Assembly (NCBI GenBank): GCA_022453515.1
Contig: JAJNNY010000062.1
Location: forward strand, 1 to 64,000
Length of the DNA stretch: 64,000 bases
Direction of reading: 5' to 3'
DNA from: Astrocystis sublimbata
Lineage: Eukaryota > Ascomycota > Sordariomycetes > Xylariales > Xylariaceae
The position numbers and the translations under genes are program-made. Positions 9,996-31,612 of this stretch are shown piece by piece; the stretch's first letter is position 1, and every line of letters begins with the position of its first letter. The notes beneath the pieces are model-generated. The model saw nothing but the letters and a program-made list of their open reading frames with translations, had not been told where the DNA came from and made no database searches.

Positions 9996-11271
9996 TCACT
10001 GAGTGAGTTTGTTACTTAACTCCCAAAGCTTCTCCGCCCCCTGCTTGTCGAGGGCGTATGCCTTGATGTCCGGATGAACTTGTCCCTCAAACAACAATGT
10101 CGGGGATTTACCTGCGTATGAACATGTCAGGCCAACTGTGGCGTAGGTCACGAAGTACAATGATAGACTTACCTCGAAGGCTAGGGTCCAGTGCGGCAAG
10201 AAGCAAGGTTGCAGAACCTTCCTGGAGGGAACGCGGTGTCGGAGGCGGGATATCGTTGCCTATAGACGTGTCAACAGTGTCTTGGTCATGCTTGTAACAC
10301 TTTTGCAGAAATGTAGTCATACCATTGTTGCGTGCAACGGACAGTTTGTAACCTTCAATCATCAGGTCTTGATCTACCCCGTTTGTCGCAAGAAGCTGAG
10401 ATTCAGGCACGACTGTGCATTATGTCAGTTGAGGGAACAAAAGGTGGGATAATATGAGTCCAAAGCGTAACTTACAGCCAGGATGAACTGCGAATGATGC
10501 TAGATTCTTGCTGCTGTATTTGCCGTGCAGACCAACGACGTGTAGGATGTTGGCCGTCTTCGCTTGGCCATATGCGACCCAGGGGTCGTAACTCTTCCCG
10601 TCCTGTTGTGGTACACACCAACATCAGTCACGTCCAGATCTCACGCAATGCCGAGCAAAAAGCCATTCTGCTTACGTTGAAGTTGACATCGTCAAAGAGA
10701 ACCTCGCTCAACTCGTAGCCGGTGCTGGTTAGATTGACAACAGTCGGGGCAGGCGATGCCAGGATCTTATCTAGGATGAGCTTCGTCAAAAGGAAGTGGC
10801 CGAGATGGTTGGCGGCGAACTGTAGCTCGAAGCCGTCGGCAGATGGCTGGAAGTTCCGCACCGCCATATTTCCAGCGGCGTTTATGACAATGTCGATGTG
10901 GTCCAAGCCAGGAAGCCCGTTGATTTTGGTGGCCGCTTGGCGGATGCTATCATTGTCGGCCAGGTCGGCCTGGACGAATGCAGTCTTTCCACTGGGGTTG
11001 AGCTTGCGAACTTCGTCGAGGACAGGCGCTATCTTGGCTTCATTGCGACCTGCGAGGATGACATACTTGGCCGAGGCTAGAGACTTTGCTGCCTCGGCAC
11101 CCAAGCTGCCCTGGCTTGCTCCAGTGATAAGTACTGTTTATGACCTAGGTGAGCTGCTGGAAGACCAAGGTTCTAGATGAACGCCAGGGGCTCACCTGTC
11201 TTCGTCGGAATTTCCTTCGCAAAGGCTGTGACCACCTCTTGTGCCGTAGTGTTACCTGTGAATGAAACCAT
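9996..11271 (-). CDS. short-chain dehydrogenase/reductase (SDR-1, retinol-DH-like)
   Basis: Six exons (11271-11196, 11133-10676, 10602-10476, 10412-10323, 10259-10173, 10111-9996) join in phase to a 317-residue classical SDR (PF00106). The cofactor motif TGASQGSLG follows VLI near residue 28, and LAGRNEAK suggests NADP(H) use. NAAG (about residue 101), a Ser in NLTST and the catalytic pair in YGQAK are all present. It would interconvert a hydroxyl and a ketone on a small hydrophobic substrate. It is the leftmost gene of the putative eremophilane cluster and is transcribed with the neighbouring FAD oxidoreductase and SDR-2. Such enzymes are found beside aristolochene synthases in PR-toxin-type clusters. 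Substrate is inferred from context only. Confidence 0.88.
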
Positions 11272-12104
11272 GTTTGGAATTCTCGAAATCGAACAAGTGT
11301 GTATGTCCTGTTGCTGTATTAGTGGATTGGGGATGACGAGATGTTCATGATAGAAAGAGCTGACTTGCAGGTGGGCGTTAGGTTATTAATACCCAATAGG
11401 TCATTCTGCCTCTTGAAGATGACATCCTGTTACTAGATGTTTCATTTGGTCTTTGTGTCTTTCATGGGCGCTGGTTGTACTACCCACCCCCGCTCCGTGA
11501 GAATGTGGCGCGAAGCCAGACTGCGTCGGTCAAAAGTAGTACTGTACCGAAAGGGGAACAGATATAGATGGCTTGTGAATGTTCTGATACGGGTGCAGCA
11601 CTTGCAGCACATCACAATTCGACCGATCTAGACCATTGCTAGGTAGTGTGCCGATTTGGGGATCTATAAAAACATGCACTTTGGGGAAATGTCCCATGGA
11701 TCTCGATGGCAAATGTACATTTCTGATCTGACATGCATGCATCGGATGACTGCCTAATTGGTCGCATCGCTCCGGCAGCCCGGAACTATGACTGCGCATC
11801 ATTACAGGCTACCACCAGGGTATCACAGTCCTATGGCACTGCACGGCCCAGCCCCTTAACAGTGTAGACAAACTTGGCACACCGCTCTGTTCTGATATTA
11901 TTTACAACGTCTAATGGAAAATGTGACAGTAAGTATATTAGCGGTAGATAATGAGAGTATGTACACTGTGAAATGACGAATAGAAATGTTGCATCCTTTT
12001 CCGGATACATTAGGTACAGAACAATCGTAAAGTGAGATGGCTTGGCAAAAAGCCCTGCAGCATAGCATAGCATTGCAGTTGACAGCTGACAAGCCCACCA
12101 TGAT
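11272..12104. other. intergenic within the cluster
   Basis: No gene is seen. It holds the promoter side of SDR-1 and the 3' flank of the FAD oxidoreductase. Confidence 0.55.
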
Positions 12105-13900
12105 TTATCCAAGCTTGAAGCCACCAGAAACCAAAGTCTGGAAATAGTGATGCGGGTCTGTTATTCTATCAGTATTGTAATGCAATTGCCAACACGACTT
12201 GAACCCTCTGCATGCAGCACAGCGAATGGGCTTTCAGAAGGAGGTACAAAAACAACGTCGCGAGGTGAATTGGACTCACCATATCTGTCGCGAATAGCTC
12301 GCATTCTCTTGATTGACCTGCCATTACCGTACAAGCCGAAAGGTTTCTGACCTGGGCCAGCATCGTTGATATAGATGAACTGGCGATCCAGCTTGCGTGC
12401 CTTGCTCGCCTTGTCCAGTTCGGCAATGAACCTGTTGGTAAACTTGTATACAAGCTGATCGTCCTTGGCTTCCTCCCAAGCGGCACCGATCAAGTGGACT
12501 ATAGAAATTAGCGAAAGAATGATAGACCGGAACGTAATTAGCACTTACATATGAGACCGTTTCCAGGCTCGATATCCATGGGGTCGCCCCCTGAGGCTCG
12601 CGCCACCTCTAGCCATGAGCGGCTAATCATTTGAGGTGTCGAGGTGATCACCAAACCTTTCAATTTCTTGAGTTCCGGCATTGCGTTATAGATCTTGAAG
12701 AGGGTGGCATTGGCTAGCAAAACCGACGCCGGATCTGCTTTCAGACCTGTCGCTCGGAATACTTGTCTGTGAAATACTCACCTCAGTCTTGAAGATTGAA
12801 ATACATGCATAAGGGATAATAACGTACCTGCCGTTCCGGGCCGAGAATGCCTCCGTGTCAGTTGTTGTTGAGAGCTGCGCCAAGTTCGGCATCACCGCGT
12901 TGTTCGAAAATAGCGTTGGGATACGAGTGAAGTTTGCAAAGGCAGCCGGGTTCGTATTCGCGTCCTGGTAGGCGCACCATGAAAGTAGAGTAATCTTGCC
13001 TGTCTTGGCTTCAATCTGCACCGAAGGGTTGTAAGACGCATTGAGGTCGTCTGACCCGCCACCCAGAGTAGAGAAATAAGCGGCAGCATTAACAAAGTCG
13101 TTTAGATATTGCGGCTCGAAGATCGAGAGGCCACCATAGACCTCACCCAAGGGAAACGTCTTGACATCGAAGCGAGTGACGATGCCGTAGTTGTTAGAAC
13201 CTCCTTTCAACGCCCAGAACAAGTCCGTGTTCTCCTTCGCGTTCGCATTGAGGATGGAGCTGTTTGCCAGGACCACTTCGTAGTTCACCACCATGTTAGT
13301 AGACCAGCCATAGCGAGACCCAAAGAAGCTGATGCCTCCGCCGAGGAGGTATCCTGGTACTCCAACCGGAGCATAACGCCCACCGGAGACGGCTAGACCG
13401 TAGGTGCTTGTCCAGTTGTACACCTCATGCCATCGCAGGCCTGGACCAAGCTGAGCCACCGTGTTTTGCTTCGTCATTTTCATCATTGTGAATTTGTTGA
13501 GAGACATCAGCACACCGTTATCAATGTTGGCGGCCCCACGGACCGGCATGTGCCCTCCGCCACGAATAGCGAATTTGGTCTTGTGCTTAACCAGAATACG
13601 TACGCCATCGGCAACATCCTGGGCTGACTCCGGTTCAAATACGCAGTTAGGAGACAGCTGCGCTGTCTCTGACCAATTTTCTTTTCACAATTAGCTGATG
13701 ATCTCTATGGAAACGTCAGGGGAGTTTCACATACCCGGGGCCACAGTAACATACTCGGCACTTCGAGGCAATGAAACTTTGTCTCCAAAGACCTTGACTA
13801 GCTCATAGCATGTGTTGGTCCTGCCCGTAGTGGCTGCATTGATACATGAAATAAAGGATAATATGAAATAGAGCGACGAGAAGAGCCGAAACCAAGCCAT
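12105..13900 (-). CDS. secreted FAD-linked oxidoreductase, berberine-bridge-enzyme type
   Basis: Five exons (13900-13735, 13680-12828, 12766-12549, 12498-12280, 12157-12105) give 502 residues. It starts with a clear signal peptide (about residues 1-22: MAWFRLFSSLYFILSFIS then CINA). A PCMH-type FAD domain (PF01565) follows, with the covalent-flavin histidine in AIRGGGH and the PGYLLGGGISFFGSRYG loop. That loop has no Cys at the second attachment site, so single covalent linkage is expected. The BBE C-terminal block (PF08031) is carried by the last two exons: YINDAGPGQ followed by a final FQTLVSGGFKLG. Enzymes of this class oxidise alcohols or form bonds in terpenoid and alkaloid pathways. Several N-glycosylation sequons fit passage through the secretory path. 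It is probably a late oxidase of the cluster. Confidence 0.9.
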
Positions 13901-15059
13901 GATGGGAAATCAACGAACAAGAGGAATGACGATAATATTGACAAGACTCTGATGTGTTTAGAAAACAGGACAATCCGATGATAACGGATAGATTTTAGAA
14001 GATGTAGGTATTTTATGAAATGGTTTTTATACCTGATGTGTCGCATTGTGATGTATCTCGTACTCACTGTCCTGCGTCTAAGCCTCTCTCGACTGATTGC
14101 ACTCAGAACAATGGTTTGCCTCTTAGCCAATTCGGCCGATAACTTCATCGGGCCTGGTTCCATTACTGAACACTAAAATTACCAAATGTCGACGCCTCTA
14201 TTGCCTCGTGAATCCTTCAAAGTCCCAGCTGAGAGGTGAGGCCTGTACCAACGGCTTATCAACCCCCAATCACACCCGGGGACAGCCGAAGGACTCGATT
14301 GGGACACATAGAGCTGAGATAATACGGACTTGTTGCCAAGTGGACTCGGGATGGTTGTTCGTTTCACACTCGGAGCGAACACAGCACTAGCAATCAAATG
14401 AAGTTGAAAATGATATAAAATATTTATACTGCAAATTATTATAATGCCCAGCTTCTTATGTTTACATTGAATAAGAATGGCCAGTCGTGGAGATGCGGGC
14501 GGGTATCCTGCATCTGCATGCAGGTACTGTGCAGCGAATACCATGTGCAAACAAGGTACGTGCATAATGCCCACCTTGGCCCAGAGAGTATTAATAGATG
14601 TTTTTGAGACACGGTAAGCAGCCCAGAGATGCCCGAAAGAGTCATGGTGTCTCCGAGTATCATAAGCCTCCATTTCACGATACTCCATGCCTAAAGGTTA
14701 CCTTGACGTTCGTTGATTAGCACTGAGCTGTGGTTCTGAAATTCAACAAAACAACGTAATGCATTTGAACTGAATCTTATTATGATACAATAACATATTT
14801 TTCACGCGTGGAAATACGAACTAATCCATTGGTAACTCTATACAGAATTAAGTAGACTCAGACATTCATACTAGGATTGTAATTATTTGCATACAACCCT
14901 ACCAGATAGTAAATTTGTTCTCAATTCCCTTTCAGCACGATAGTTCGCAAGATAACTTCAACATTTCAACTTGTGCGTTTAAAAGTGTCGCTTCGCATAC
15001 TTCTTTCATGCGACTACTGATGCGAGCATTCTCTGTCTTTTTCTATCAACACTCAACGT
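13901..15059. other. intergenic within the cluster, AT-rich
   Basis: No supportable gene is seen. It contains the promoter side of the FAD oxidoreductase and the 3' flank of SDR-2. AT-rich patches lie near 14400-14450 and 14750-14830. Confidence 0.55.
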
Positions 15060-16144
15060 TCAAATCTTTCTGAAGTCTGTGACGGTCTGCTGCTGCTTCG
15101 TGAGATCCGAAGTCTTCCATCCCAACCAGAACGGCTGCAGAGTCGCGTGAGGCTGTTCTAGCTCAACATACTCGTCGGCTAAGGTGAGGATCGTCCTGCC
15201 GTTCCAACGGCCTGGCCCGTCATTCAGAGGAGAGTCTTTCCCATAATTCTCCACACGCCGCTTCTGCTTCGCTGTAGCTGAGTACACTAGGGCTCTACCG
15301 ACGAATTCGGCTGAGCTCACGGGTAAACCTGCGTTGATCATCGGTGCTGCGAGATCTTGGGGCAGCAACTTTGTCACTGTGGCGGCGGGTGCAACGCAGT
15401 TGATTGTTATATCGTCCATTATGAGCTGACTCCGAAGACCGCGCATGAGGCCAATTGTCTATTTATCGACTGAGAACGCTGTCAAAGTTTTTGGGGGGGG
15501 GGGGGCTTCCGGGTCACTGACTGCAAATTTCGAGGCACTGTAGACAGGCAGGTTATGCTCAGGAGCATAAGCGGTAGCGCTGCTTGTGATGACGATGCTA
15601 CCGCCGCCCAAAATGCCAGCTTCTCTTTGTTTCCTAATGTGGCTGACAGCAAGCTTTACGAAGCTCACGACAGATCGGAAGTTAACATCGATGACGCCAA
15701 AGGCGGGCTCAAGAAGTTCACCCTCCACGTCTCGTCGATCCTCAAAGTAGTCATATTCTTCACTCACGCCGGCGTTGGCGATCGCGATATCGAGACGTCC
15801 GGTCTCTGCGATACATCTCTGAAATGCTGCATTCAGGTCACTCCATCTGGCTACATTACACGGGATGAAAGTTGTCGTCTTTGGAAGCACAGGCTCATCC
15901 TCTGGAGGCTTGGGTATCGACTCGGCATCTGGGGGGCTCAAATCCAAGATATAAACTCGAGCGCCCTTACGAGCCATGAGACGAGCTGCCGCAAGCCCTA
16001 TTCCCGAACTGCCCCCTTTTGAGTAGCCCAGAATTAGTCGCGATTCATTGAGGAAGTCGAGGACTGGCAATTGGTACCTGTGATCATGGCTACTTTGTCA
16101 TCTAAACGAGGGATATCCTCATCTGTGAACTGTAGTGAGGCCAT
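15060..16144 (-). CDS. short-chain dehydrogenase/reductase (SDR-2)
   Basis: Three exons (16144-16078, 16015-15522, 15458-15060) encode 319 residues. The Rossmann motif TGGSSGIG is split by intron 1 after the first Gly codon base. [13 protein letters not shown] suggests NAD preference, because an Asp sits at the end of the second strand. NAG (ANAGVS), a catalytic Ser in SSATAY and YSASK are all present, so the enzyme should be active. Overall it resembles the 15-hydroxyprostaglandin-dehydrogenase-like SDRs common in fungal clusters. It is transcribed divergently from the aristolochene synthase across an 860-bp gap. It would oxidise an alcohol introduced by one of the P450s. Intron 2 carries a run of 13 G (C on the coding strand). 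Confidence 0.9.
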
Positions 16145-17004
16145 GGCGAAAACGAAATGCTTAGAATTTGAGACTCCTGGGACGTTGAGTGTAAATGGGC
16201 TGTACCAATGCCCCAGCTGCGACGTAGGTTTTAAGATGCATGGGATGAATCTCGATCGCGCCGCAGGGAGTCCGATGACAACGAATTGCCTAATTAGGAA
16301 CTTTCCTGCAATGTCATATTGCGACCAGCAGGGAAAGTAACCGGGAAAGTTCGCTCAATTGGAGAAGCAGATCAAAGGAACAAGTTCTATAGACTCATTC
16401 GCGAGTTTGCTGTGTCGTTGCCGAAATGTGACTCGCATGGGGCCTCTCTGTCCGTTAGAACCTCATATTACTCATTCATACAGCCGGGTGAGATGAGATA
16501 TCCCTCACATCTCTCCTCCCACTCTGCCACCTTAAGAAGTTGCATGCCAAACCGGGACGTTGCCCCTTTGAGCCATTTCCTCGGTTGGGTTCACTGGATT
16601 TGCGAAAATTCACGGTTCAAACGGGTCATCTGAATTCAGTGACCAAGTTGTGGTCAAGTGTGCTCTCGTCGCGGATGCTTTCTTCTCTCGGAATCTATTC
16701 CACCTAGGAGGTGAAGGGAGTGCTTGTTGAGATTCGAGCAACGGAGCTTGGGTGGTTACTAATGTTGCCCTGTACATTGACGTAGGTAGATGAATGTTGT
16801 GTTGCGAGGAAAGCCCCACCAACCACGAGAGATGAAGAATGGTCATTAGTTAGAGGCAAGGATTTTGAAACATAAAAGGCCGGTAGGTCGACAGAGATTG
16901 AATAGAAGCCTAGTAGAACAGGGTCTCTAACACAGCAAGCAGAAGTGTCTTCATCCAAGCCAGTCGCGACTTAACAAGCTTACCTTATAACACTATCATA
17001 CACA
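16145..17004. promoter_or_regulatory. divergent promoter region, SDR-2 / aristolochene synthase
   Basis: These 860 bp separate two genes that start outward. A TATA-like TTATAA sits about 20 bp before the synthase ATG, which has the good context CACAATGG. Shared control of both genes is plausible. No TCGN5CGA (AflR-type) site was found here by eye. Confidence 0.5.
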
Positions 17005-18159
17005 ATGGCAGCCATTCTAAGCCCAGTCCAGTCAATGGACATCAAGAAAGACACAATTTCCATTACATCCCAGGAAGCCAGGATTCCTAGTCCTCCGATC
17101 TCTGAGGTTTCAAGAGAGGCAGATTGGACCCCGCTATGCCATCCCAAAGTCGACGAGGTGTCGCGTGAAGTCGACGACTACTTCCTACAGCATTGGAACT
17201 TCCCCGGCACCAAAGCACGACGCACCTTTGTGAACGCTGGATTCAGCCGCGTTACCTGTCTCTACTTCCCCCTGGCGAAGGATGACAGGATTCACTTTGC
17301 CTGTCGTTTGTTGACAGTCCTGTTCCTTATCGATGGTAGGTAGACCCTGCTCATAACGAAGAAGCAGACAAGGCCAAGCTATGGGTTCTGGCTCGCTTCT
17401 AGATTTGCTCGAGGACATGTCGTTTGAGGATGGCTCCTCCTACAACGAGAAGCTGATCCCCATCGCTCGCGGCGACGTCCTCCCTGACCGCAGCGTGCCT
17501 GTCGAGTACATCACATATGACTTATGGGAAAGCATGCGCGCTCACGACAAGGAACTTGCCGACGAGGTGCTAGAGCCTACCTTCACATTCATGCGTGCGC
17601 AGACGGACAAGGCCCGCTTGACAATCACCGAGCTCGGCCACTACCTCGAGTACCGCGAGAAGGACGTGGGCAAGGCGTAAGTGAAATTACTCCTAATCTG
17701 AGGCATGTGTGTCTAGAGTAGACGGCTAACTGACCAACCATACCCAGTCTTCTGTCCGCACTCATGCGATTCTCGATGGACCTGCATCTCACGCCGTCGG
17801 AGCTTGTCCGCATGAAGCCGCTTGAGCAGAACTGCTCGAAGCATATTTCCATCGTAAACGACATTTGGTCATATGAAAAGGAGGCCCGCAGTGCTCAGAC
17901 AGGGCACAAAGAGGGTGCATTCCTCTGCAACGCAATGTCGGTGTTCGGAAACAGCACGTCGCTCGACATCGACGCTTCTCGGCGAGTGCTGACATACATG
18001 ACTTGGGAGTGGGCTAGGGTGCATGACACATTGGTTGCCGAGGTCGAGGCTACAGGCTGCCATGAAGCCGTAGGGGAGTACATGAAGGGTCTCGAGTACC
18101 AAATGAGTGGCAACGAACTTTGGAGCAAGACGACGCTCCGATACTCACAGGTTGAATGA
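17005..18159 (+). CDS. ari1: aristolochene synthase
   Basis: Three exons (17005-17335, 17403-17676, 17748-18159) give 338 residues, matching the roughly 320-342 of fungal aristolochene synthases (class I terpene cyclase). The protein closely follows the known Penicillium/Aspergillus enzymes, for example CLYFPLA.DDRIHFACRLL, LIPI.RGDVLPDR, GHYLEYREKDVGKALLSAL and KGLEYQMSGNE.WSKTTLRY. The magnesium motif is complete: Asp110-Asp111-Leu-Leu-Glu114-Asp115, whose second Asp codon spans intron 1. The NSE triad is N239, S243 and E247 in NDIWSYEKE. It converts farnesyl diphosphate to (+)-aristolochene in the cytosol, the first committed step to eremophilane sesquiterpenoids. The first 30 or so residues vary, as in the family. 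It is the anchor of the cluster. Confidence 0.95.
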
Positions 18160-18845
18160 GTGCCAGCCGGCCCCCACTGAAAGCGATGTTGTAGCGCTAG
18201 CTCTAGGGAGTTGAATTAAGTATTCGTTAGCCAGATATGCAATTACTGGATATTGTTGTTTTGATCTTGAATGCATGGTCCTATCTGTCACATCCACGTT
18301 TAGCTCTGCCTGTCTGGTCTCATAGACTAACAATGTTCTGTGCAATAATTGTCTCACCAGGTCATCCAATGTACGTAGTTTAGAACTCTGTATGTCAATT
18401 ACAATGCTGATTTAATTTGGAATGTATCCGTTGAAGATGACTCTATCCAGCCAAGTCCTCCGTGGACTCTAGCGCAGCTGAACGGTCTAGGCGTGCCGAT
18501 CCGGCCACCATCCGCCGCCTGCCTTATTCCAGATAGATGCCAATGCCGCCCGCTCCATTTCCTAGAACAGACAAATGTTGCGATGTAATGCCTTTTAGGA
18601 TTAGGCAAGTTAACAGCAGTCTAGATTCGTCTTCTCGGTTGGGGCCTATCTGGGCAACATGGCAAGCCCTTCCTCGCGTATAGGATGCTTCATCAGCGTT
18701 TTCTCTGTGCAGCTTAGCTTGCCTGAACATCAGACAATGAAGGTTCTTTCAAAATACAGCTGATGATCCCATAACAACTTCCCTTGGAGTGAGTTCCTTC
18801 GAAGTAGCAGAAATCTAAGAACGACTGAAGAAAAAAGACCCAGTC
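18160..18845. other. intergenic between synthase and P450-1
   Basis: No gene is seen. It serves as the synthase 3' flank and the P450-1 promoter. Confidence 0.55.
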
Positions 18846-20869
18846 ATGGACATGGACGTATGACAGGGGGACAGTATTCGCACGGTGCACATCGTGGCCC
18901 TGGTAACGGTAATATACCCCTGAGCCTCCACTAAGATATAGTTAGTGATGTTGAGAAACAGGTCATTGCAGTCATACTCCGCACTGTCTACAAGCATTAT
19001 ACCCACCCTCTCTACCACATTCCCGGGCCCTTTTTGGCGGCGTTATCCAATGCAACATACAGTCGCATGTTCCTCGGTGGGCGCCAGCCCTATGACATTC
19101 TAGCCCTCCACGAGAAGTACGGCCCTGTCGTCCGGATTGCCCCTAACGAGCTCTCCTTCTCGTCTGCTTCGTCATGGGATGACATCTACGGTTTCCGCCC
19201 CGGGCACAGAACATTCATCAAGAGCGCGTTCTACGATGGGGGTAGCTTTGCTGACCAAGCCCACTCCATTGTGAGTGAGAGAGATCCGATCGAACATGGA
19301 AAGAGTACGTGCACCACTGCATCTAGCCATGCAGGCCTCCTTCTATCAGCTCAACCCGAATTGACTTTGCGGACAAACAGTGCGAAAATACCTCAGCCAC
19401 GCCTTCAGCGATAGCAGTCTCAAGAAACAGGAGGAGCTTGTCGCGCAGAATGTCGACCTACTGATGACCAAGCTTGGTTCGATTGGCAACAGCCCCAATG
19501 GCGTGAACATAGTCAAATGGTTCAATCTAGCGACATTCGACATCATTGGCAGCTTGGCATTCGGAGAGTCCTTCGGCGGCCTGTCGACAGGTGCGCTTCC
19601 CAGATCATATTAACTGTGAGACACATTCATCGATACTGACTTGGCAGAACAAACTCACTTTTGGATTGAGAAGGTGATGAAAGCGCTGCGACAGGGCGCT
19701 ATGGCCGATACTATGAGCCGGTTCCCATCTCTGGCCTGGCTCTTCAAGACCCTAGCTCCCCAGCGCATCGAAGAATTCAGTAGAGATACGCGAGAGCATG
19801 AGGCATACACTATGGCCCTAATCAATAAGTGAGTGATTGTCTTCGACAGTTTTGATGGGCGTAACGCGGTCAGCATAGAGCTATAACTAACTGTATATTC
19901 TCTAGCCGGCTGTCCAAGCCTGATTCCCGTCCCGACTTCCTTACCCGCACCTTGGAGCAAAAGTCAAACATCACTGCCGTGCAGCTTGCAGCTCATGCAT
20001 CGGACTTCGTGTGAGTGAATGCCCACGTGTGTATACAAGCGCTTTCATGGAATGGCACCAGTCAACCTCGAATGTGCTAAAGGGATCTATGCATGTCACT
20101 AATTCATCACAGTACTGCCGGCTCTGAAACTACTGCCACGGCTTTGAGCTGCATCGTGTACTACTTACTTAGGACTCCCCTTGTGCAGCAGCGACTCAAA
20201 AACGAGATTCGAACGAGGTACGAGAGATATGAGGAGATCGCCTCGCAGACGGCAGTTCAGCTTCCGTACCTTCGTGCCGTATGTCTAGAGGGGATGAGAA
20301 TATATGCACCGCTCCCCTTGGGTCTTCCCCGGGTCGTTCCTGAAGGCGGTGACACAGTTGATGGCATCATGATACCGGCTGGCGTAAGTCAATGTGAACC
20401 CACCGGCTGTTTTCCTGTGATCCTGACTTTGTGATGCGGTACAGACAGTAGTATCGACGAACCCAGTAGCTGCTGGTCTATCATCGGCAAATTGGACCGA
20501 TCCGCATGAGTTCAGACCGGAAAGATGGCTTGGCCTGAATAAGGAGGACATTTCGGATGCATCGCAGCCCTTCTTACTCGGCCCTATGGGCTGTCTAGGT
20601 CGCAAGTAAGTCCTTCATTGCCAAAACCGCATCCATGAGGCATATGCAATACGGGGCAGTTCGCTGACATATCACATCTATCAATCAGCCTGGCTTGGAT
20701 GGAGATGTCCACTATCCTCTCAAAACTGCTTTTCAAGTTTGATCTTGACCTCGTTAACAAAGAGGTGGATTGGCAGCGAGACTCGCGCATGGCTACCCTC
20801 TGGGTGAAACCCGAACTTTACGTGCGTATTCTGCCACGTGCGAGTGGCTGGACAGGGATCGGCCGGTAG
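18846..20869 (+). CDS. cytochrome P450 (P450-1, CYP65/TRI11-like), in-frame stop in exon 1
   Basis: Eight exons (18846-18902, 18962-19304, 19381-19590, 19648-19828, 19906-20010, 20113-20383, 20445-20605, 20689-20869) join in phase to about 502 codons. Landmarks are: HPLYHIPGPFLAALS after a short N-terminal anchor, I-helix TAGSETTATAL, EGMR of the K helix, FRPERW, and heme loop FLLGPMGCLGR with the axial Cys near residue 439. The type resembles CYP65-class hydroxylases such as those of trichothecene clusters. Exon 1 reads MDMDV and then meets a TGA (18861-18863). The hydrophobic anchor (HIVALVIAVIL) continues in the same frame after it and across the first intron. So the gene is either silenced at its 5' end, started elsewhere, or affected by a sequencing error. 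It probably hydroxylates the terpene skeleton. Confidence 0.85.
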
Positions 20870-22394: not shown

Positions 22395-23889
22395 ATGTTC
22401 GGCACTTTGCGACTGAACCAGCAGTCCAACAGCGTTGACTTTGTCCAGCGAGCGGACGGCAAGGCCTTCTGCGACGCAGGGAGCATCATCCCGCCCCATT
22501 CCGCCTGTGTTCATTGCAGAGCCAAAAGGGTGGGTAATTTCGTGCCGACCATGGCATTTTCTATTTCCCAACCTCTTATCGATCTCCCAGCGTCTTACGG
22601 GTCATGTAGCTCCCGCTAATCCTTATATGTCGCCTTCGTATAGTTGCGGTGCGGTGGACAAAAGCCCGAATGTTCTCGCTGCAAATCGTCCTCCCTCGCG
22701 TGCGCGTATGCCGCCGTAGACGGCACGGAACGGCGTCGAGCTCATGGCACTAGCCAGAAGCGAAACCATGGTGGACAAGTCGTAGTCCCCCCGGCCGCTG
22801 CCTCGCCCTCGTCTTCCCCTTTTTCCTCGAGCTCCGACGTCACATGTGGAGATGGGAACAGTAGCTCTTCGTCAATCTCCACATGGCCACCAACATCTGC
22901 CCCCAGCTCGGCTTCTTCCAGTGTCAGTGCCCGGGCCCCGAAAAACGCGGGGAACGACGCTACAGCTGCGGACAAAAGCACCGACTCATCCGACCATCAC
23001 GGCGCTTGCTCGGATGCAGATCCTTTTGACGTCACGATTGGATCGCAATGTGCCAGTTTGGATCTCTCCTACTTCACGAATACAGCAGCTGCATCGGGTG
23101 AGAATGCCACCACCGATAACATCGGTAGCGAGGGGCCTTTTTCGACGACGTTTTATGTGAGTCGACACAGATACGTTCCAAAAATGAACGACAGACTTGA
23201 AGAGCGAGCTGTACTAAATCTCAGATCAAGGTACACCCTGGTCTCTTGTTTCAACAGACTTATTGAGCTTTCCAGACTTACGAGCCGCTACATCACGGGC
23301 AGACTCCCGCATCTTCGCCTCTCTGCTAGCCCCTTATGACGACCCGGCGCTCTTTCCGACTGAGCTCGCAACCGGCGCAGACAGCGGCACCAGGCGTGAC
23401 TGCCGATGTCTTCACACCATCACGCCCCTACTTGAGGAAGTCGAAGAGCGCATGCACACTATGAGACCCCCGAGGCTCGAAGGCATTCTGGCATGGCAAA
23501 AGAATGCCTGCGTTAAATGCGCCCAAGTCCTGGGCTGTCCGGCGTGTTACGCGAGCTCAGAGCACATGATGCTACTGATCATGTTCAGCGACAAGCTCGT
23601 CATCTTAACCCAGAAGTTGATACAGCTCACGGCAGTCGAGTCAAGCTTCCAGGGCACAATACTTCCGGTGCGGGATTACGAGATCTGCGATCCTGCGGAA
23701 GTCGTGGGCCTGGTGAGGCTCCTCGGCGGCATGTGCATTAAACATGTAGCGAAGCTCCTGGTGTGTATCAAGGTGAGCCCGGCGGTGGAGGGAAGACAGG
23801 TGCAGATGATGCTTATTCGGAGCATAGAGCAGCGGATAGATAAAGTCATTTCAGGATTAAGGGAGTCAATAGGGTCGCTATTACAATAA
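22395..23889 (+). CDS. Zn2Cys6 transcription factor with AflR-like C-terminal region
   Basis: Exons 22395-22529, 22644-23124 and 23258-23889 give about 415 residues. The zinc cluster is complete: C-x2-C-x6-C-x6-C-x2-C-x6-C, starting SACVHCRAKR and continuing LRCGGQKPECSRCK after intron 1. A Ser/Asp-rich linker follows. The C-terminal half (RCLHTITPLLEEVE, then CPACYASSEHMMLL and LIQLTAVESSFQG) resembles the AflR domain (PF08493) of pathway-specific regulators. An upstream in-frame ATG (22299) would add 32 residues. The second intron is uncertain. The strong GTGAGT at 23157 gives the wrong phase, while GTAGCG at 23125 fits. Its position inside the gene group suggests that it switches on the cluster in the nucleus. 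Confidence 0.83.
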
Positions 23890-24506
23890 ACAAATTTCCA
23901 GCCACTACCTATATCTGGTTACTCTACAACTAGCTACATAAAGCAGGTAGGAATGATTACCCCGGGATCCGAGATCGACTTCCATACTCCTCACTTTCCT
24001 ACCCATCGGCATCAAACGTGTATTTTGAGGCACGCCTGTTTATTGGAAGATCCGTCGACCTACTTACATGTGATATTGGTACCCTCCTAGCAAAACTTTG
24101 TACATAATTTAGGCAAGTTAATATTTTCTATTAATGGCTAATGAATCTGGTTTCTGGTCAGCATGTGAGTCTTACTCTACGGAGTAGGAGTATCATCAAT
24201 CTGGGGTTATAGTAGGACTTTAGTTTCTATGTGTCGCCGTTGGGAGCGTGAGCCTTTTTCGGTTAGCATACGGGTCGGAAGCGATCCGGGTAGCCTGGAC
24301 TAGTACGGGGTACATGCTGCATTTACTCATAGCTCTTCACGCCAAGCTTGTATGCAATGCACGACTCTAGTAGAATCCTGAAGTGATATACCGAGCTGTA
24401 AAATTCTAAATCAACGACTAAGATTGAGCTCATTCTAAAGAAGTAGGTCCATGAGCAAGAGTGAGGTTCTGAGTGGCCCTTGCAAGCGACACAAATTTCC
24501 CGATCC
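23890..24506. other. intergenic between convergent genes
   Basis: No gene is seen. It holds the 3' flanks of the regulator (+) and P450-2 (-). Confidence 0.55.
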
Positions 24507-26417
24507 TCAGGTTCTGCGCCTGCGAAACTCGACAACGGCATCCATGTTCGGCAGATACTGCGTCTCAAAGTTTAGGCTTGGGGGTCTGTTCTCGAGACCA
24601 GTCTTGCCACCTGGAAGACGGAACTCATAATTTTCGAGAAGGTGCACCATGATCATCTTGATCTCGTTGCTTGCAAACCAGCGACCGGGGCAGGCATGCC
24701 GGCCGTAGCCGAATGCCATGCTCTCGTGAGTAGAGCTTGAATAAGCCAGTTTGCCCAACTCTGCCGCGTTGTTGTTGCTATTGCTAGTTTTGGGACCGCC
24801 ACGGGCTTCGATAGAACCCCGCAGCTTTGAGAAGCGGAAACCGTCGAACCTTGTCGGCTCCTCGTAGAACGCCGGATCCATCGAGATCGCCTGCGTCGGA
24901 ACTCCGATTTGCGTGTTGCCGGGGATGCGGAACCCATCCGAAAACGTGTATGGGCGGTGGATAAACCGTTCAAAAGTGACTTGCATCCGTACTCTCAATC
25001 AGCGATTGTCTGGAGCACACTATGTGCATGGGGGAGTGAGGATGAACTAACCAAGAAGAAGGGGGTTGAAGCGCTGACTCTCCTTCATCATGCTATCCAG
25101 CTTCTCAAGTTTCATCAATGAACGCTTGTCAAAGCCGTATTCGCAGAATTCTCTTCTGACGTCGCGAATCTCAGCTAGCAAAGGCTCGACATACTCAGGC
25201 ATGGCACACAGGTCGTAAAGAAGCTGCGTTGGGGCGGCGGCACTAGTGTGAATAGCGGCAAAGCTCAGCTTCAGCTGAATCTGTGCCAGAAAGCTATCTT
25301 CCTTCTCTTCTCCCTCGGCATTTTCAACCATCCACTGGAGGAAGTCAACTGGAGCTTCTCCGTCGGTATCCGGCCAGCCTGCTGCTGCTGCTGCTCGCCT
25401 AGCGCGCAGGATTGGGACAATGACTCTCTGTGCAGTGGCATGGTGCTCTTTGATTTTCCCCAGAGCAGGGATGAACATGGCAACAAGAGGCCGGATGATC
25501 TCGGGGTACTGCTTGATAGCTTGAGCTCCCATGAAGCCGTCTAAGGCAAAGTTGATAGTTGCATCGACCCATGGCTGGTTACGCGATAAGTCCGTGCCGC
25601 CAAACATGCGAGATGAAACGCGTGCTACGATCTGCACCATGGCATGGTGAGCGTTGATGGGATGCCAATCTGGTGCCTTGTCAGTTATAGTAGACTCATG
25701 TTACGGCATATTGCCAGTCAGCCAAGAGACAGGACACTCACCATCTGTCGCTGGAATGTTCAAGTCAAAGACTTCTCCTATTTCGTCTTTCACCGGCTTC
25801 AAGACTTTCGCTATAACCCAGGTATTAGTTACGAACTCGCCGTGGTCAATTTGTGCCCGTTGATTATACGTACCCATGTAATGATTGAGGTCCTGTTTTG
25901 CTGTTCGCGGATGCAGTGTTGACCGACTACCCATCGTGGTATACCTGCCTTCGAACATTTCAAAGAAGGTCGCAACAAAGTCGACTTCGTCGACGGGAGC
26001 TGTCTTGAGCTCCTCTATATATCTACTGGGCAGCATCAAGCGCTCTCCCAAGGGGCTTGGGACATACCAGGGACGGCCCTTGAAGGTCTGGTATCCTTGC
26101 TGGAGCATTGTGACGGCATCGGTCCTGAACCGCAACCGGGCCGTTCTCAATGTCTTTTTAAGATCCTTGGGGTCGACGCAGGCTATAGGTGCGTCTGCGT
26201 ATCTCTGCTTGACTGGCAACGAGGTCCAGAGTGTGTAAATAGATCCTATGATTAGAAGGACGACAATGACCATTGCTCGCACGGGCACCTCATTGTATCT
26301 GAGAACGAGGGTTTCAAGAATATGCGATTTCGGGCTACTGAGTTGTCGAGATGGGGGATCGACGATGTATGCCGCCAGAGCGTGCTCGGCGGCAATCGGT
26401 GTTGTATGGCCTGCCAT
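24507..26417 (-). CDS. cytochrome P450 (P450-2, ent-kaurene-oxidase-like type)
   Basis: Four exons (26417-25874, 25810-25742, 25669-25052, 24979-24507) encode 567 residues. The N-terminus is unusually long. About 45 polar residues precede the membrane anchor (AMVIVVLLIIGSIYTLW). The K helix has ESQR, and the heme loop is FGYGRHACPGRWFA with axial Cys near 507. That loop and the non-standard I-helix (FAAIHTSAAAPTQ instead of AGxETT) are typical of the fungal CYP503/CYP68-like group that includes ent-kaurene oxidase. The group often performs multi-step oxidation of a methyl on a terpene. The long His/Asn-bearing insert before the heme loop (TSNSNNNAAE) is a variable loop. It lies back to back with P450-3 on the same strand. 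Substrate is inferred from cluster context. Confidence 0.9.
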
Positions 26418-27056
26418 GTGGTTATGACAACTTTGTATGCTCTAGGGAAATTTGTGCTAAACTCATTCGCTTCAGAAAAGGATCAAAACTTGGAAAGCGA
26501 TGTCAGATATCATGTTTTCGTTACAACTGATAAGCTATGGGCCGTTTTTCACAGCAGCTGTGTTGATCAGATAATGATTACTATGGTCTACACCAGGAAC
26601 TTCGATCTGATCTTGGCGCGACTAACTCGCGGACGATAGATTCCCTTTCGTTCTTCGACGAGTGAGATCATCTAGGTCTGTATCTCGAAGCAGACAGGGG
26701 GGGCTGAGCTAAGGCGTCGGATAGCACCCTTCCACAAATGGCATCTATCCGAAATCTCACCGTCGACCACCCCTAATAGGCTATCGTCCTGGACCAATTA
26801 GTCTGTGAGGACCACCAGCACAACTGCGAGAACAGGAAGTTTCAATTTGTCAACAATCAAGGAACAGTGGTACTGCTAATCAACAGCTTCATCTCTCATG
26901 CTACGCAGTTGAGTCTCGACAATGTCCCTAGCCTCCCCTCGTGCACTAATAATATTATGATAGCATTCAGCATTTCAATTATAGCACTTGTCAGCGAATG
27001 TTACGCTTATCTCGCTTTATGTATATTTCTCTGTGATCTAGGTAGAATAGGCACAA
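26418..27056. other. intergenic between P450-2 and P450-3
   Basis: No gene is seen. It holds the promoter of P450-2 and the 3' flank of P450-3. Confidence 0.55.
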
Positions 27057-29073
27057 TCAAGCTCTATGGTCCGATGTCATTCTCTCACGCTCACAAAACT
27101 CGACATACAAATTTGGTTTCCACCACATCACATGGCATTGGCTTTCATTGAGCCATTTTACATCCGTATTGACAATCCTCCAATCATACCTGAATATCAT
27201 TTTCGCCAGAATGAGATTAATCTCCATGATGGCAAAGCTAGAATAGTGTCGTTAGCTAACTACCTACTGTATGATTCTAGCAGTGGAGGAAAAGACTAAG
27301 TACGTACTTTTGTCCCAAACAGCCCCTAGCCCCGAGGGAAAAGGGCTGACTAGCTTCCTTTACGCTCTTGCTTTCAGGGTCTAGCCAGCGGTCTGGTAGG
27401 AAGTTGTAAGCATCCGGAAAGTATTTCTCATCGTGGGTGACGGTATATGCGCTGGTGTAAACCTCGGCCTGTGATACCTCATTAGATTTCGCCTCGGAAT
27501 TCTCAATTTAGACATACCCCTTGGGGAACCCAGTAGCCATCCACGTGTGCCCCAGGCGAGACACGAGGGAATCCCTGTGAGCCTGGGGGGTAGATTCGTA
27601 GACCCTCACTGATCACGGCTTGAAGGTAGGGGAGCTGCTGAGCTGACGTAGCGGTGATCTCTTCATACGAAGCAAAGCGACCTCGGACTTCCTGACACAA
27701 TCTCTTCCAGATCGCTGAGTTCTCAGATTGAAGAAGAAAGTATGTAGTGGCAGCAAGGAAAGTCGCAACGGTTTCGCCACCAGCAATCCTATATGAGCTT
27801 GAGTGATGGATGTTCCGCCGTTATAGCATATAAAAACTTACACAAACGTCGAAGCATGTGCTGTCATTTCCTCCTTCACAATCTCACCTGACTCGACTTT
27901 TGCCACGAGATTTGACATGAAGTCCTTGTGGTTGGCCTTGCTTGAGAGGCGCCTGGTGAAATGTTATTTGCGAACTTCAAACATCTAGATCAGGAATGAG
28001 CATACTGTTCTACCTTCTCCCTTGTATACCCAGTATGTTTGTTCTTGATAGAGGAAAGGAATGGGAACACCAATTTAGCAAGTGTTGGAATCAGGGGAAA
28101 GCGACGTAGATTATCGGCCACCGTGATAAAGAAGAGATGATCGAGGATGAGTTCTTGCCAAAAGTGTGGTTTGCCTGGTCATGATAAGCATCACACGTTG
28201 CGTCAGACTTTGTCGGATAAGTACGGAAGGGCTCACCAGCGTCGACGCAACCAAAAGCTTCCCCGAACGCCATCTCGCCCAAGATATCAAATGCAAGCAT
28301 CTCATACCATTTGGTCATGTTCAAGCCTTCCGAGCCTGGCTGTCCAAGCTTGCCGATTTTCTCAACAAAAATGTCAACATGTCTTGCGACCACAACCTCT
28401 TGCTCTCGGAGGGCCTTCGTAGCGAATGCGGCCGATAAGGACTGCTTCATCTTCCTGTGCTTCTGGGGGTCGCGTTCACTCCCAATACAGAGGGAGTTGA
28501 ACCCAGACCCGTACATGTCGTAAAACTCACCCTTCGGCAGCGTCTTCCTTTGGCCAACCGCATGCCCGTATATGTCCTTCCATGAATCGACGGAAGCGAA
28601 AGACAGCTCATTGGGCGATACTCGGAAGACGGCACCTCAGAACAAGCATTAGCTATATTGAAGATATTGCAACCTAGCAAGATGCACAGCTTACCGTATT
28701 TACCATGCGCATCGTCAATTGCAAGATGCAGCCGACCTCTTAATGAATACCAGATACGCCATAACTACGAAAAACGAATTCTGTGAGTTCAAAACTGACA
28801 AGACCACGGGTTAAGGGCCAATCTGCATTACGTACTAGAGTAGATCGCGCTAAGAACGGGCCGGGATACGACGCGAGAGGGTGGAAAAAGACGTTGTATA
28901 GAGCCGCGCCAACTATGTAGATGAAAGCCTATGTAGCAACGCGTTAGCACTTACCAACTACAATTAAGTGACGAGCTTACCAGGATGAGAGTTGCTTGGA
29001 GAGCCGATAGCAGCGAATGGCTAGCGCCATACATGTTCATCATGCCCTGCCTGTATTCACGGTCTCCTTCCAT
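27057..29073 (-). CDS. cytochrome P450 (P450-3, CYP65-like)
   Basis: Nine exons (29073-28981, 28928-28836, 28764-28695, 28635-28237, 28174-28030, 27952-27842, 27788-27518, 27468-27308, 27237-27057) join in phase to 507 residues. An N-terminal anchor (ILAFIYIVGAALYNVFF) is followed by HPLASYPGPFLARS, HGKYGAVFRVSPNELSF, EGLR in the K helix, DRWL in place of PERW, and heme loop FSLGARGCLGQ with Cys near 444. The I helix reads IAGGETVATFL, with Val where the second Thr usually is. It is the same broad type as P450-1, with matching intron positions around the heme loop and I helix. The pair therefore probably arose by an old duplication. It is an oxygenase of the terpene scaffold by context. Confidence 0.88.
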
Positions 29074-29608
29074 CGTTCAGTTGCGGTTCTGTTGATACGA
29101 TTACGTCCAACTGCCTTCATCTAGACCTAATTGTTCTTCTTAGTTTTTAAAAACATTTTTCTCATCTTTTGTTGCCGGTACTACATTCCTGGACAATGCT
29201 ACAGTCTCAATATGGCCAGCCAAGACTTGCAACTTATTTAGCCCGTGTACTTGGACCAGCTTATTTTAGGAAGTAGCCCGGCGCCAGCCACCTCGCTACA
29301 GTACTGGATTAGTGCGCAGTATCCTTCCAGGGCACTCGCTGGCTGTAAGCCTACGAACCCAACCGCATTCGGCCTGCAACATTGAGTCGATACGGTGCTG
29401 CATGACGATTGACGCGATTTATGAGTTTTATAATAAGACTCACATAATCGAAGATATACTGAAATGTATATCTATCTGCAGCCCCTAGCCAATTTTGTGA
29501 GACGTTGGTTGTTGCAACTAATTATTGTTTCCTTGTTCACTAATATCGGATCGAAAGGGCGTGATGCGTACCTAGCTACACCGTGCAGAAATCACCATCT
29601 CAAAGATC
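29074..29608. promoter_or_regulatory. divergent promoter region, P450-3 / P450-4
   Basis: A 535-bp gap lies between outward-facing P450 genes, and shared control is plausible. No gene and no clear factor site were recognised. Confidence 0.4.
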
Positions 29609-31612
29609 ATGATGTTCACGCCGCCTATGGTGCTAGCACTGCTGGTCCCCGTCTCTCTATTGTATAATACTTATCAACTAGCCCGCCACGTACGGGCGGC
29701 TAGGCATACTGGTCTGCCGTATCGTATCGTCCCATTCCTCGAAACCGAGATAGTAGCACAGCTTTTGACGCCCCTGCTTCGATGGCTATATACGGCGCAA
29801 TTGAACGACGGTCACGGATGGCCGCAGTGGTGCCGATTCATGATCAAAGATTGGTCATGGGAGGACAAGCGTCGCGCACATGACCAGTACGGTGATGTCT
29901 TCCTCGTGGTCTCCCCTCGAGGTATCATTTGCTACTCTGCCGATGCTACCATGGGTTGGGATGTGATGAACCGACGATACGACTTCACGAAGCCAAGGGA
30001 TAAATACAGTATGTTCTGAGCCTTGAAGAACATTCGAAAACTAATCTTTGCATAGAGATCCTAGAGCCTTATGGACCGAATGTGGTAACCGCAGAGGGTA
30101 GTACCTACAGGTTCCATCTCCGCATGACTGCACCGTCGTTCTCAGAAGGCACGGGCGTAAATACCCTGGTATGGGAAGAAGCGACACGCCAGACCAGTCT
30201 CTTAATGGACAACTGGCGCAAAGGGCTCACAGAAAGTCTCGAGGAGGATATCGGTGCCATGACCCTAGGGGTAATCTCACTAGCAGGCTTTGGGAAGCAG
30301 ATTGGGTCTGTTCACGAACAAGCTCAGGACGTAGAAACTGGATTTGAGATCAGTTTCCTGACCGGGCTCCAGACCATTGCTCGTCATATCCTTGCAATCT
30401 TGGTATTTCCTTCTTGGTTCTTAGACTGGACACCATGGGCGCGTGCGAGCATGGCGAAGAGGCAGTTGGAGATGTATCTTCGAGCCATGATCCGCCGAAA
30501 GAAGAACGCCATGGGATCTAGCATCAAGGCAGAGCGAAACGCCTCTACCACGTTACTCGACTCTGTTGTTGAGGCAGCTCTCGAGGAAGCGCAAAGCCAA
30601 GAGGAGGGGGACTCGAAAGCTAAGAAGCAAGGGCTCACAGAAGACGAAGTTATGGGCAATCTTTTTATCTATTTGCTTGCAGGTGCGTACATTGGGACCA
30701 AGCCGATGAGTGATTTCGCTGACCAGTCCAAGGATACGAGACAACGGCGAATAGTATTCATTTCGGCTTACTCGCACTTGCCACAAATCCTGAGATTCAA
30801 TCGAAGGTTATAGAGGAGATAGATAATGTCTGGGAGCAGGCACATGCTGAAGGTCGCACCGAGCTTACATACAAAGACGACTTCTCCAAGTTGGAGTATA
30901 CGTTCGGCTTTATGGTAATTACATTTATTTGTCGTTCGGTCTGCCAAACCATTTTCCGTTCCCGGGGGGCAACATTCTCACAGTGTAGTGTGAAGCTACT
31001 CACCTCCACTCTACAGCCAGTACACTGACTTGTATCTTGACACAGTACGAGGTGTTCAGATTGTATCCTTCCGTGGTGCTCATTACAAAGATGTGCACGG
31101 AAGCACAAACGATTCAAGTCAGAGATGAGAAGACCAACATGGTCCACACGCATTCGCTACCGGCGGATTGTCGAGTATATCTATCTTCTCCAGGTGTGCA
31201 CTACCACCCACGGTACTGGGAGAATCCATACGAGCTACGACCCGAGCGATGGCTTACCGACAAGTTCTCGCACATTGGCAACGGAGCCGCGCAGCGAGAC
31301 AAGCAGGTCGCTGCAGCCGACAAGACGCGACAGATGAGAGGCACCCTGCTAACATTCTCGGACGGTGGGCGGGCGTGCTTGGGCCGCAAGTTCGCTCAGG
31401 CTGAATACATGGCCTTTCTTGCTGCCCTACTGAGACAGTTCCGCGTTAGATTCGCAACTGATGTCAATGTTGATTTGGCAGCCGCCAACCTTAGAAACAA
31501 ATGCGGTGGGAAATTGACATTGACCCCAATAGAAGGCTTCAGACTGGAATTGGAAGCGAGAAAACCAAACAGCTCCTTTGAAGGCACTAGTACTAGAGGT
31601 ATCTGCGTATAA
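29609..31612 (+). CDS. cytochrome P450 (P450-4, divergent type)
   Basis: Four exons (29609-30008, 30056-30682, 30733-30914, 31046-31612) encode 591 residues. The N-terminus is hydrophobic (MVLALLVPVSLLYNTY). The I helix is intact only if the 50-bp intron 30683-30732 is used, giving LLAG|YETTANSIHFGLL. The K helix has EVFR, then ELRPERW, and the heme loop is FSDGGRACLGRKFAQAE with Cys near 514. It differs strongly from P450-1 to P450-3 and has a charged insert before the I helix (EEAQSQEEGDSKAKKQ). The loop resembles the fungal P450s of secondary clusters that act late on terpenoids. It marks the right edge of the cluster, because the next gene is a DUF3433 membrane protein. Confidence 0.9.

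What the first reader, a model, noticed from the sequence alone, without database searches (positions are those of the whole stretch)
9996..31612. Putative eremophilane sesquiterpene cluster around an aristolochene synthase
Nine adjacent genes fit one pathway: the synthase, two SDRs, a secreted flavin oxidase, four P450s and an AflR-like regulator. The enzyme set recalls PR-toxin-type clusters. Here, though, there are four P450s of at least three types, and no acetyltransferase, transporter or PKS. This predicts an oxidised eremophilane that may be new.
Basis: partly seen in the sequence, partly recalled or inferred. Interest (0 to 1): 0.8.

Follow-up and report, generated by a model that had tools for sequence, protein, structure and literature searches.

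The report
Nine-gene oxidised eremophilane cluster
A fungus of the family Xylariaceae carries an intact nine-gene set that very probably makes an oxidised eremophilane terpene, much like the gene set behind a known Penicillium toxin but without the acetyl-adding enzyme; the gene set is of a familiar kind, the product is unidentified, and a related set with a polyketide synthase sits elsewhere in the same genome.

Summary
All nine genes are present and open at 9996-31612; three models (aristolochene synthase AS, flavin oxidase, last P450) equal database proteins letter for letter, recorded as Astrocystis sublimbata (Xylariaceae). Relatives of AS, oxidase, SDR2, P450c and P450d recur in linked pairs or triples in other fungi, so a real pathway cluster is likely. 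Parts of the interpretation weaken. Four P450s do not separate it from PR-toxin: the published P. roqueforti list also has four, plus two SDRs, a flavin oxidase and a Zn2Cys6 regulator. The window's set matches that list by type, minus the acetyltransferase and ORF7. The regulator is Zn2Cys6, but the Pfam AflR profile misses it. New here: the genome has five AS-like loci, and one (C129) holds diverged relatives of six of the nine genes plus an HR-PKS and an acyltransferase. The window cluster thus looks like the unacylated sister of an eremoxylarin-type cluster. Expected product, by inference: an 8-oxo, ring-hydroxylated, side-chain-oxidised, unesterified eremophilane. Whether it is new cannot be said from sequence. 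New member of a known kind.

The parts
9996..11271 (-). SDR1, 338 aa, short-chain dehydrogenase, five exons; same size class as prx1 (340 aa) of the PR-toxin cluster
   Evidence: model; adh_short; YGQAK motif; only 32% to the nearest gene of C129; best other copy in the genome C188, 43%
12105..13900 (-). FAD-linked oxidase, 502 aa, hydrophobic N-terminus (possible signal peptide), GGGH site
   Evidence: model equals P0121; FAD_binding_4; PDB relatives; N-terminus and motif; contig shared with AS relatives in 22 of 120 listed AS hits
15060..16144 (-). SDR2, 319 aa, head to head with the AS gene; candidate for the common C-8 ketone-forming SDR (inferred)
   Evidence: model; adh_short; 51% identical to the N-terminal part of two Colletotrichum records that also contain AS; 52% to a C129 gene and 45% to a C180 gene
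16145..17004 (.). intergenic region shared by SDR2 and AS starts (860 bp)
   Evidence: gene models; no shared regulator motif found
17005..18159 (+). aristolochene synthase, 338 aa, three exons
   Evidence: model equals P0001; PDB aristolochene synthases 1dgp E=1.2e-136 and 2e4o E=3.8e-135; Terpene_syn_C_2; metal-binding motifs
18846..20869 (+). P450a, 487 aa; first exon uncertain; haem motif FLLGPMGCLG with Met where its relatives have Arg
   Evidence: model; p450; 53% to a C129 gene, 44% to a C141 gene; motif
22395..23889 (+). Zn2Cys6 regulator, 417 aa (start and first intron inferred)
   Evidence: model; Zn_clus E=1.9e-8; AflR profile absent
24507..26417 (-). P450b, 588 aa, of neither the P450a/c nor the P450d type; no match in the other four AS loci
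   Evidence: model; p450; other listed copies in the genome 27-40% identical
27057..29073 (-). P450c, 515 aa, nine exons
   Evidence: model; p450; 56-64% to the N-terminal halves of five database records whose other half is P450d-like; 50% to a C129 gene, 47% to a C180 gene
29074..29608 (.). intergenic region between the divergent P450c and P450d (535 bp); the same divergent pair occurs in C129
29609..31612 (+). P450d, 591 aa, relative of a P450 named prx9; candidate ring hydroxylase (inferred)
   Evidence: model equals P0241; p450; P0293 named prx9 in another fungus; contig shared with AS relatives in 16 of 120 listed AS hits

Best explanation
The nine genes form one biosynthetic cluster of the aristolochene (PR-toxin/eremoxylarin/hypoxylan) kind in Astrocystis sublimbata. 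AS cyclises farnesyl diphosphate to aristolochene (inferred from close match to solved enzymes). One of P450a or P450c with SDR2 makes the 8-ketone; P450d (prx9-like) oxidises the ring, most likely C-1; the flavin oxidase, possibly routed to the secretory pathway, finishes side-chain oxidation after a hydroxylation by one of the P450s; P450b and SDR1 add further oxidation or redox adjustment. With no PKS or acyltransferase found in the 64 kb, the end product is expected to be a free, multiply oxidised eremophilane rather than an ester. A second cluster (C129) keeps relatives of six of these enzymes together with an HR-PKS and an acyltransferase and is the probable source of acylated congeners. 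Shown: gene content, open frames, recurrence of parts of the set elsewhere. Inferred: every reaction assignment, co-regulation and the product.
For: AS matches solved aristolochene synthases at E about 1e-135 and lies in a clade of 11 rows (support 100/99) with Xylaria hypoxylon g326, Xylariaceae AK1471, Fusarium redolens and others, in a tree of 68 of the 120 listed relatives. From the tables, 22 of 120 listed AS hits share a contig length with a listed oxidase hit, 16 of 120 with a P450d hit used, 6 with both (own genome included). Close locus tags: X. hypoxylon g326/g329, Helicocarpus 09175/09174, Monosporascus 002043/002044, Villophora 002843/002845/002840, X. bambusicola 012864/012865, Aureobasidium 06269/06262. 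Five records (four Aureobasidium subglaciale, one Didymosphaeria) carry P450c-like and P450d-like halves, one (A. leporis) P450d-like and P450a-like pieces, two Colletotrichum records SDR2-like and AS parts. C129 holds relatives of AS, oxidase, SDR2, P450a, P450c and P450d within about 25 kb, beside an acyltransferase and an HR-PKS. Published work assigns C-8 oxidation to a common P450 and SDR, C-1 and C-3 hydroxylation to PrL4 and PrL7, and a side-chain acid to HrL3 with the flavin enzyme HrL4.
Against: No expression or metabolite data. No shared regulator motif above chance. In X. hypoxylon the P450d relative (g3720) is on another contig than AS and oxidase (g326, g329), so the set is not kept together even in a near relative. 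SDR1, the regulator and P450b were not tested for linkage in other species, and SDR1 and P450b have no counterpart in C129; their membership rests on position. P450a has Met where its relatives have Arg in the haem motif. The PrL/HrL enzymes were mapped onto these genes by type, size and order; their sequences were not held.
Confidence: 0.7

Rival explanations
1. The cluster makes an already described compound (for example an eremofortin-, phomenone-, hypoxylan- or eremoxylarin-core-type eremophilane). This does not exclude the best explanation; it concerns the product only.
For: By type the gene list equals the published P. roqueforti list minus acetyltransferase and ORF7; many fungal eremophilanes are described (listings); AS groups with X. 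hypoxylon, a species that makes eremoxylarins.
Against: P450b was matched to no characterised enzyme, and no sequence comparison with characterised tailoring enzymes was possible, so identity of product is not supported either.
Confidence: 0.35
2. The two clusters work together: the HR-PKS and acyltransferase of C129 esterify the alcohol made by the window cluster, so the product is an eremoxylarin-type ester.
For: C129 carries an HR-PKS, an acyltransferase and a parallel tailoring set; [quoted passage not shown]
Against: C129 has its own AS and oxidases, so it needs no supply; the related enzymes are only 34-53% identical, which points to separate pathways.
Confidence: 0.1
3. Only part of the stretch is one pathway: the core (SDR2, AS, oxidase, P450c, P450d, perhaps P450a) is real, while SDR1, the regulator or P450b belong to other functions.
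For: SDR1 and P450b have no counterpart in C129; SDR1, regulator and P450b were not tested for linkage in other species; no shared promoter motif.
Against: All nine lie within 21.6 kb with gaps of 535-1525 bp between flanks of unrelated type (ankyrin repeats, HET, DUF3433, GH16); the PR-toxin cluster has same-type partners for SDR1 (prx1) and the regulator (ORF10).
Confidence: 0.2

Closest known systems
PR-toxin cluster (ORF1-ORF11: prx1-4, prx8, prx9, ORF7, prx11, ORF9-11) of Penicillium roqueforti
   Same: AS, quinone (flavin) oxidase, two SDRs, four P450s, Zn2Cys6 regulator; sizes window/PR in aa: AS 338/342, oxidase 502/521, SDR1 338/340 (prx1), SDR2 319/329 (prx4), P450d 591/579 (prx9), P450c 515/509 (ORF9), P450a 487/480 (ORF11), P450b 588/540 (prx8), regulator 417/458; the pairing is mine
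   Different: no acetyltransferase (prx11) and no ORF7 found in the window; gene order differs; the best Penicillium oxidase relatives listed are 42% identical, and whether they are prx3 was not established
Eremoxylarin cluster proposed for Xylaria hypoxylon (xhR3-xhPKS)
   Same: X. hypoxylon proteins are the nearest relative of the oxidase (g329, 68%) and among the nearest of AS (g326, 79% over 89% of the query); A. sublimbata is also of the Xylariaceae
   Different: the published cluster has a PKS, the window has none; I could not confirm that g326-g329 is that cluster
Hypoxylan A cluster (hrTc-hrL8) of Hypoxylon rickii
   Same: terpene cyclase, P450s, two SDRs (HrL5, HrL8), flavin-dependent dehydrogenase (HrL4); no PKS or acyltransferase mentioned
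   Different: encodes a transporter; contains the aromatase P450 HrL1; sequences not compared
[quoted passage not shown]
   Same: AS, SDR, three P450s
   Different: has an MFS transporter, a lipase/thioesterase and a membrane protein; no flavin oxidase named; one SDR
Cluster C129 (105-141 kb) of the same genome
   Same: relatives of AS (50%), oxidase (39%), SDR2 (52%), P450a (53%), P450c (50%), P450d (34%); same divergent P450c/P450d pair
   Different: adds HR-PKS, PF02458 acyltransferase, another P450 and another SDR; no relative of P450b, and only a 32% match to SDR1; a regulator was not looked for there

Membership tests
aristolochene synthase | class I terpene synthase with aspartate-rich and NDxxSxxxE motifs (motifs recalled) | tested here: met
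   DDLLE at 110-114 and NDIWSYEKE at 239-247; N, S and E of the second motif kept in 120, 119 and 120 of 120 listed relatives
aristolochene synthase | sequence relation to enzymes of solved structure and known product | tested here: met
   1dgp and 2e4o at E about 1e-135
aristolochene synthase | converts FPP to aristolochene | not testable with these tools
   needs an enzyme assay
PR-toxin-type cluster | AS with flavin oxidase, two SDRs, several P450s and a Zn2Cys6 regulator | tested here: met
   against Table 3 of PMC10144355
PR-toxin-type cluster | acetyltransferase (prx11) giving the 3-O-acetyl group | tested here: not met
   none in the models scanned; PF02458 at E up to 1e-6 finds six places in the genome, none on C149. 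Left of the window unknown. So it is not filed as a PR-toxin cluster
PR-toxin-type cluster | one-to-one orthology of each tailoring enzyme | tested here: inconclusive
   P450d has a relative named prx9; characterised prx sequences were not held; the others were not tested
eremoxylarin-type terpene-polyketide cluster | PKS in the cluster | tested here: not met
   the only ketosynthase match listed on C149 is at 160.8 kb, 130 of 161 candidates scored; met instead by C129
AflR regulators | AflR domain PF08493 with Zn2Cys6 | tested here: not met
   Zn_clus found; AflR absent in a protein scan at E up to 10 and not among six genome hits
deoxyphomenone (DPH) cluster | MFS transporter HpDPH6 beside AS, SDR and P450s | tested here: not met
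   no transporter among the window models scanned; DPH content from PMC11980549

The most novel reading that the evidence does not exclude
One fungus keeps two old, diverged versions of the same eremophilane tailoring set: C129 with HR-PKS and acyltransferase for esters, and the window cluster, without them and with an extra P450 (P450b), for a free polyoxidised eremophilane of undescribed structure. This would be a paired case, within one genome, of pathway divergence by gain and loss of the acylation module.
Probability: 0.35. Interest if true: 0.5.

Novelty: new member of a known kind. Interest (0 to 1): 0.38.

Why it matters
Eremophilanes include a known mycotoxin, antibacterial compounds and a compound that affects sporulation, and published work holds that gain and loss of tailoring genes shapes such pathways. 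This genome offers a clean comparison: two related tailoring sets, one with and one without the acylation module, plus three smaller AS loci. It would help link P450 types to oxidation positions. The cluster itself is of a familiar kind.

Tried and rejected
Regulator motif: TCGN5CGA occurs 19 times in the window against 16.2 expected, 25 of 100 shuffles reaching 19; 126 half-site tests and k-mer sharing over the seven intergenic regions gave nothing beyond shuffles. No evidence for co-regulation.

AS-oxidase co-inheritance: distance correlation r=0.67 over 22 pairs, 0 of 5000 permutations as high. Not used as evidence for function, because shared species history gives the same signal.

Contig sharing: tables were transcribed by hand. 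The lists are capped: 120 of 384 AS hits, 120 of 608 oxidase hits. For P450d, 93 of 109 rows were used (P0245 has no contig; P0335-P0349 are distant). Several shared contigs are megabases long, so sharing alone does not prove proximity. Reading the joined records as gene-prediction fusions of neighbours is my inference; the five P450c/P450d records come from only two species.

PDB searches for P450b, SDR2 and SDR1 gave only family-level matches. Telomere-repeat, tandem-repeat and tRNA scans gave nothing bearing on the cluster.

AflR-type regulation was considered and rejected. Left open: which of P450a and P450c is the C-8 oxidase. C180 has a P450c-type gene with AS and an SDR2 relative, C141 a P450a-type gene with AS, and the PR-toxin C-8 candidate (ORF11, 480 aa, by my mapping) is closer in size to P450a; these point in different directions.

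The gene finder is my own script; splice sites or ends of seven of the nine genes were then set by hand or by a second run, SDR1 and P450b staying as first predicted. One search scanned the first versions; the final versions of six were rescanned and the regulator. Models of C129, C141, C159 and C180 are uncurated; the extra P450 of C129 lacks a recognisable haem motif in its model.

Full report
What was checked. I built gene models with a script and set splice sites by hand where needed. All nine are open, with GT-AG introns, and the outer ends fall exactly on 9996 and 31612. Three models (AS, flavin oxidase, P450d) are letter for letter the proteins P0001, P0121 and P0241, whose records are named Astrocystis sublimbata on a contig of 205841 bases, a fungus of the Xylariaceae. 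The other six models have no such confirmation; the starts of P450a and of the regulator are the least sure.

What the genes are. Pfam gives adh_short for both SDRs, FAD_binding_4 for the oxidase, Terpene_syn_C_2 for the cyclase, p450 for all four P450s and Zn_clus for the regulator. The cyclase matches the solved aristolochene synthases 1dgp (E 1.2e-136) and 2e4o (E 3.8e-135) and has both metal-binding motifs. The P450s are of three types: a and c are 40% identical to each other, d and b stand apart. All four have a cysteine haem motif by a simple pattern, but P450a has Met where its relatives in C129, C141 and P0332 have Arg. The oxidase has a hydrophobic N-terminus; by the same crude measure 48 of 81 relatives of at least 480 aa do too, so 'secreted' is plausible, not shown.

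Is it a cluster rather than a coincidence? Among the 120 listed AS relatives (of 384 found), 22 share a contig length with one of the 120 listed oxidase relatives (of 608), and 16 with one of the 93 P450d relatives used (of 109); six have all three, the window's own included in each count. Locus tags show close neighbours in several (X. hypoxylon g326/g329; Helicocarpus 09175/09174; Monosporascus 002043/002044; Villophora 002840/002843/002845; X. bambusicola 012864/012865; Aureobasidium 06262/06269). Eight database records look like fusions made by gene prediction across neighbours: five join P450c-like and P450d-like halves (four from Aureobasidium subglaciale, one from Didymosphaeria), one (Aspergillus leporis) joins P450d-like and P450a-like pieces, two (Colletotrichum) join SDR2-like and AS parts. 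So AS, SDR2, oxidase, P450c, P450d and probably P450a recur in linked pairs or triples; I did not see all of them together in one other named fungus. Against the reading, X. hypoxylon has its P450d relative (g3720) on another contig.

The rest of the genome. The genome is held (42.6 Mb, 189 contigs) and the window is the first 64 kb of contig C149. AS finds four further loci: C129, C141, C159, C180. I fetched 14 stretches around them. C129 (about 105-141 kb) has an acyltransferase (PF02458), an AS (50% identical), another P450, another SDR, an oxidase (39%), a P450c relative (50%), a P450d relative (34%) facing it head to head as in the window, an SDR2 relative (52%), a P450a relative (53%) and an HR-PKS whose pieces show ketosynthase, acyl transferase, dehydratase, methyltransferase, zinc-binding dehydrogenase, ketoreductase and carrier domains. 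C180 has AS, a P450c-type gene (47%) and an SDR2 relative (45%) near two MFS-type transporters; C141 has AS and a P450a-type gene (44%); C159 has AS and scattered weak matches. P450b has no match in these four loci, and the other copies listed in the genome are 27-40% identical. These paralogue models are uncurated.

Comparison with what is published. I read PMC10686045 in full, the abstract, results and discussion of PMC11980549, and the PR-toxin section plus passages including Table 3 of PMC10144355; of PMC8403587 and PMC13293291 I saw passages only. Table 3 gives the P. roqueforti PR-toxin cluster as two SDRs, AS, quinone oxidase, four P450s, acetyltransferase, transcriptional regulator (Zn2Cys6 by the text) and ORF7. 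By type the window's nine genes are that list without acetyltransferase and ORF7, with mostly similar sizes (P450b 588 against 540 aa and regulator 417 against 458 aa fit least). So four P450s are not a difference. PMC10686045 describes aristolochene clusters for sporogen AO-1, hypoxylan A, eremoxylarin D and PR-toxin: a common P450 and SDR that may make the 8-ketone, PrL4 giving C-1 and PrL7 C-3 hydroxylation, HrL3 with the flavin enzyme HrL4 giving a side-chain acid, a PKS in the eremoxylarin cluster, and transporters in all four, which the window lacks. By order I read PrL2 as prx4, PrL4 as prx9, PrL7 as ORF9 and PrL9 as ORF11; that mapping is my inference. PMC8403587 reports an hrPKS, a cyclase 66% similar to aristolochene synthase, two acyltransferases, three P450s and an FAD enzyme in Annulohypoxylon truncatum, which resembles C129.

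How it most likely works. FPP to aristolochene (AS); 8-hydroxylation and oxidation to ketone (P450a or P450c, then SDR2); ring hydroxylation, most likely C-1 (P450d); side-chain oxidation (a P450, then the flavin oxidase); further steps by P450b and SDR1. No step is shown; all are assignments by type. With no acylating enzyme found in the 64 kb the product should be unesterified. The region left of the window is unknown.

Regulator. It is Zn2Cys6. The AflR profile is absent in the protein scan at E up to 10, and a genome search with that profile finds six places, none on C149. No shared promoter motif was found. 'AflR-like' is not supported.

Novelty. In the held library two papers name Astrocystis sublimbata, neither about this cluster by title and abstract start. 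Searches on eremophilane or aristolochene clusters and on xylarialean gene clusters listed none that describes it by title or abstract start; five of those six listings show only part of the hits (15 of 478, 40 of 56, 20 of 27, 12 of 374, 10 of 42; one search showed all 10), and subscription journals are not covered. It is a new member of a known kind. The most interesting point is the pair of tailoring sets in one genome, one with and one without the acylation module.

Noticed in passing
G000 contig C129:105-141 kb (loci L010-L013): A second eremophilane-type cluster in the same genome with acyltransferase and HR-PKS, holding relatives of six of the nine window genes.
   Followed up: partly
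G000 C141:173.0-174.0 kb, C159:13.9-14.9 kb, C180:36.5-37.6 kb: Three further aristolochene-synthase-like genes, making five in one genome; C180 also has P450c- and SDR2-type genes near two MFS-type transporters.
   Followed up: partly
window 1: The window begins at base 1 of its contig, so the cluster lies only 10 kb from an assembly gap.
   Followed up: no
window 18846-20869: P450a has Met where its relatives have Arg in the haem-binding motif.
   Followed up: no
protein P0245: A P450 deposited from Nodulisporium sp. is 65% identical to P450d; its context was not visible.
   Followed up: no
G000 contigs C31/C123, C42/C170, C113/C141, C126: Genome searches return pairs of matches with equal scores on paired contigs, or inverted on one contig, suggesting duplicated segments or unmerged haplotypes in the assembly.
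   Followed up: no
window 1102-2907, 7503-8395, 32200-35418, 36090-37381: Flanking genes are of unrelated type: HET domain, ankyrin repeats, DUF3433, GH16.
   Followed up: no
window 42675-45950: A 1092-aa low-complexity reading frame with a weak NUDIX match and several short tandem repeats.
   Followed up: no
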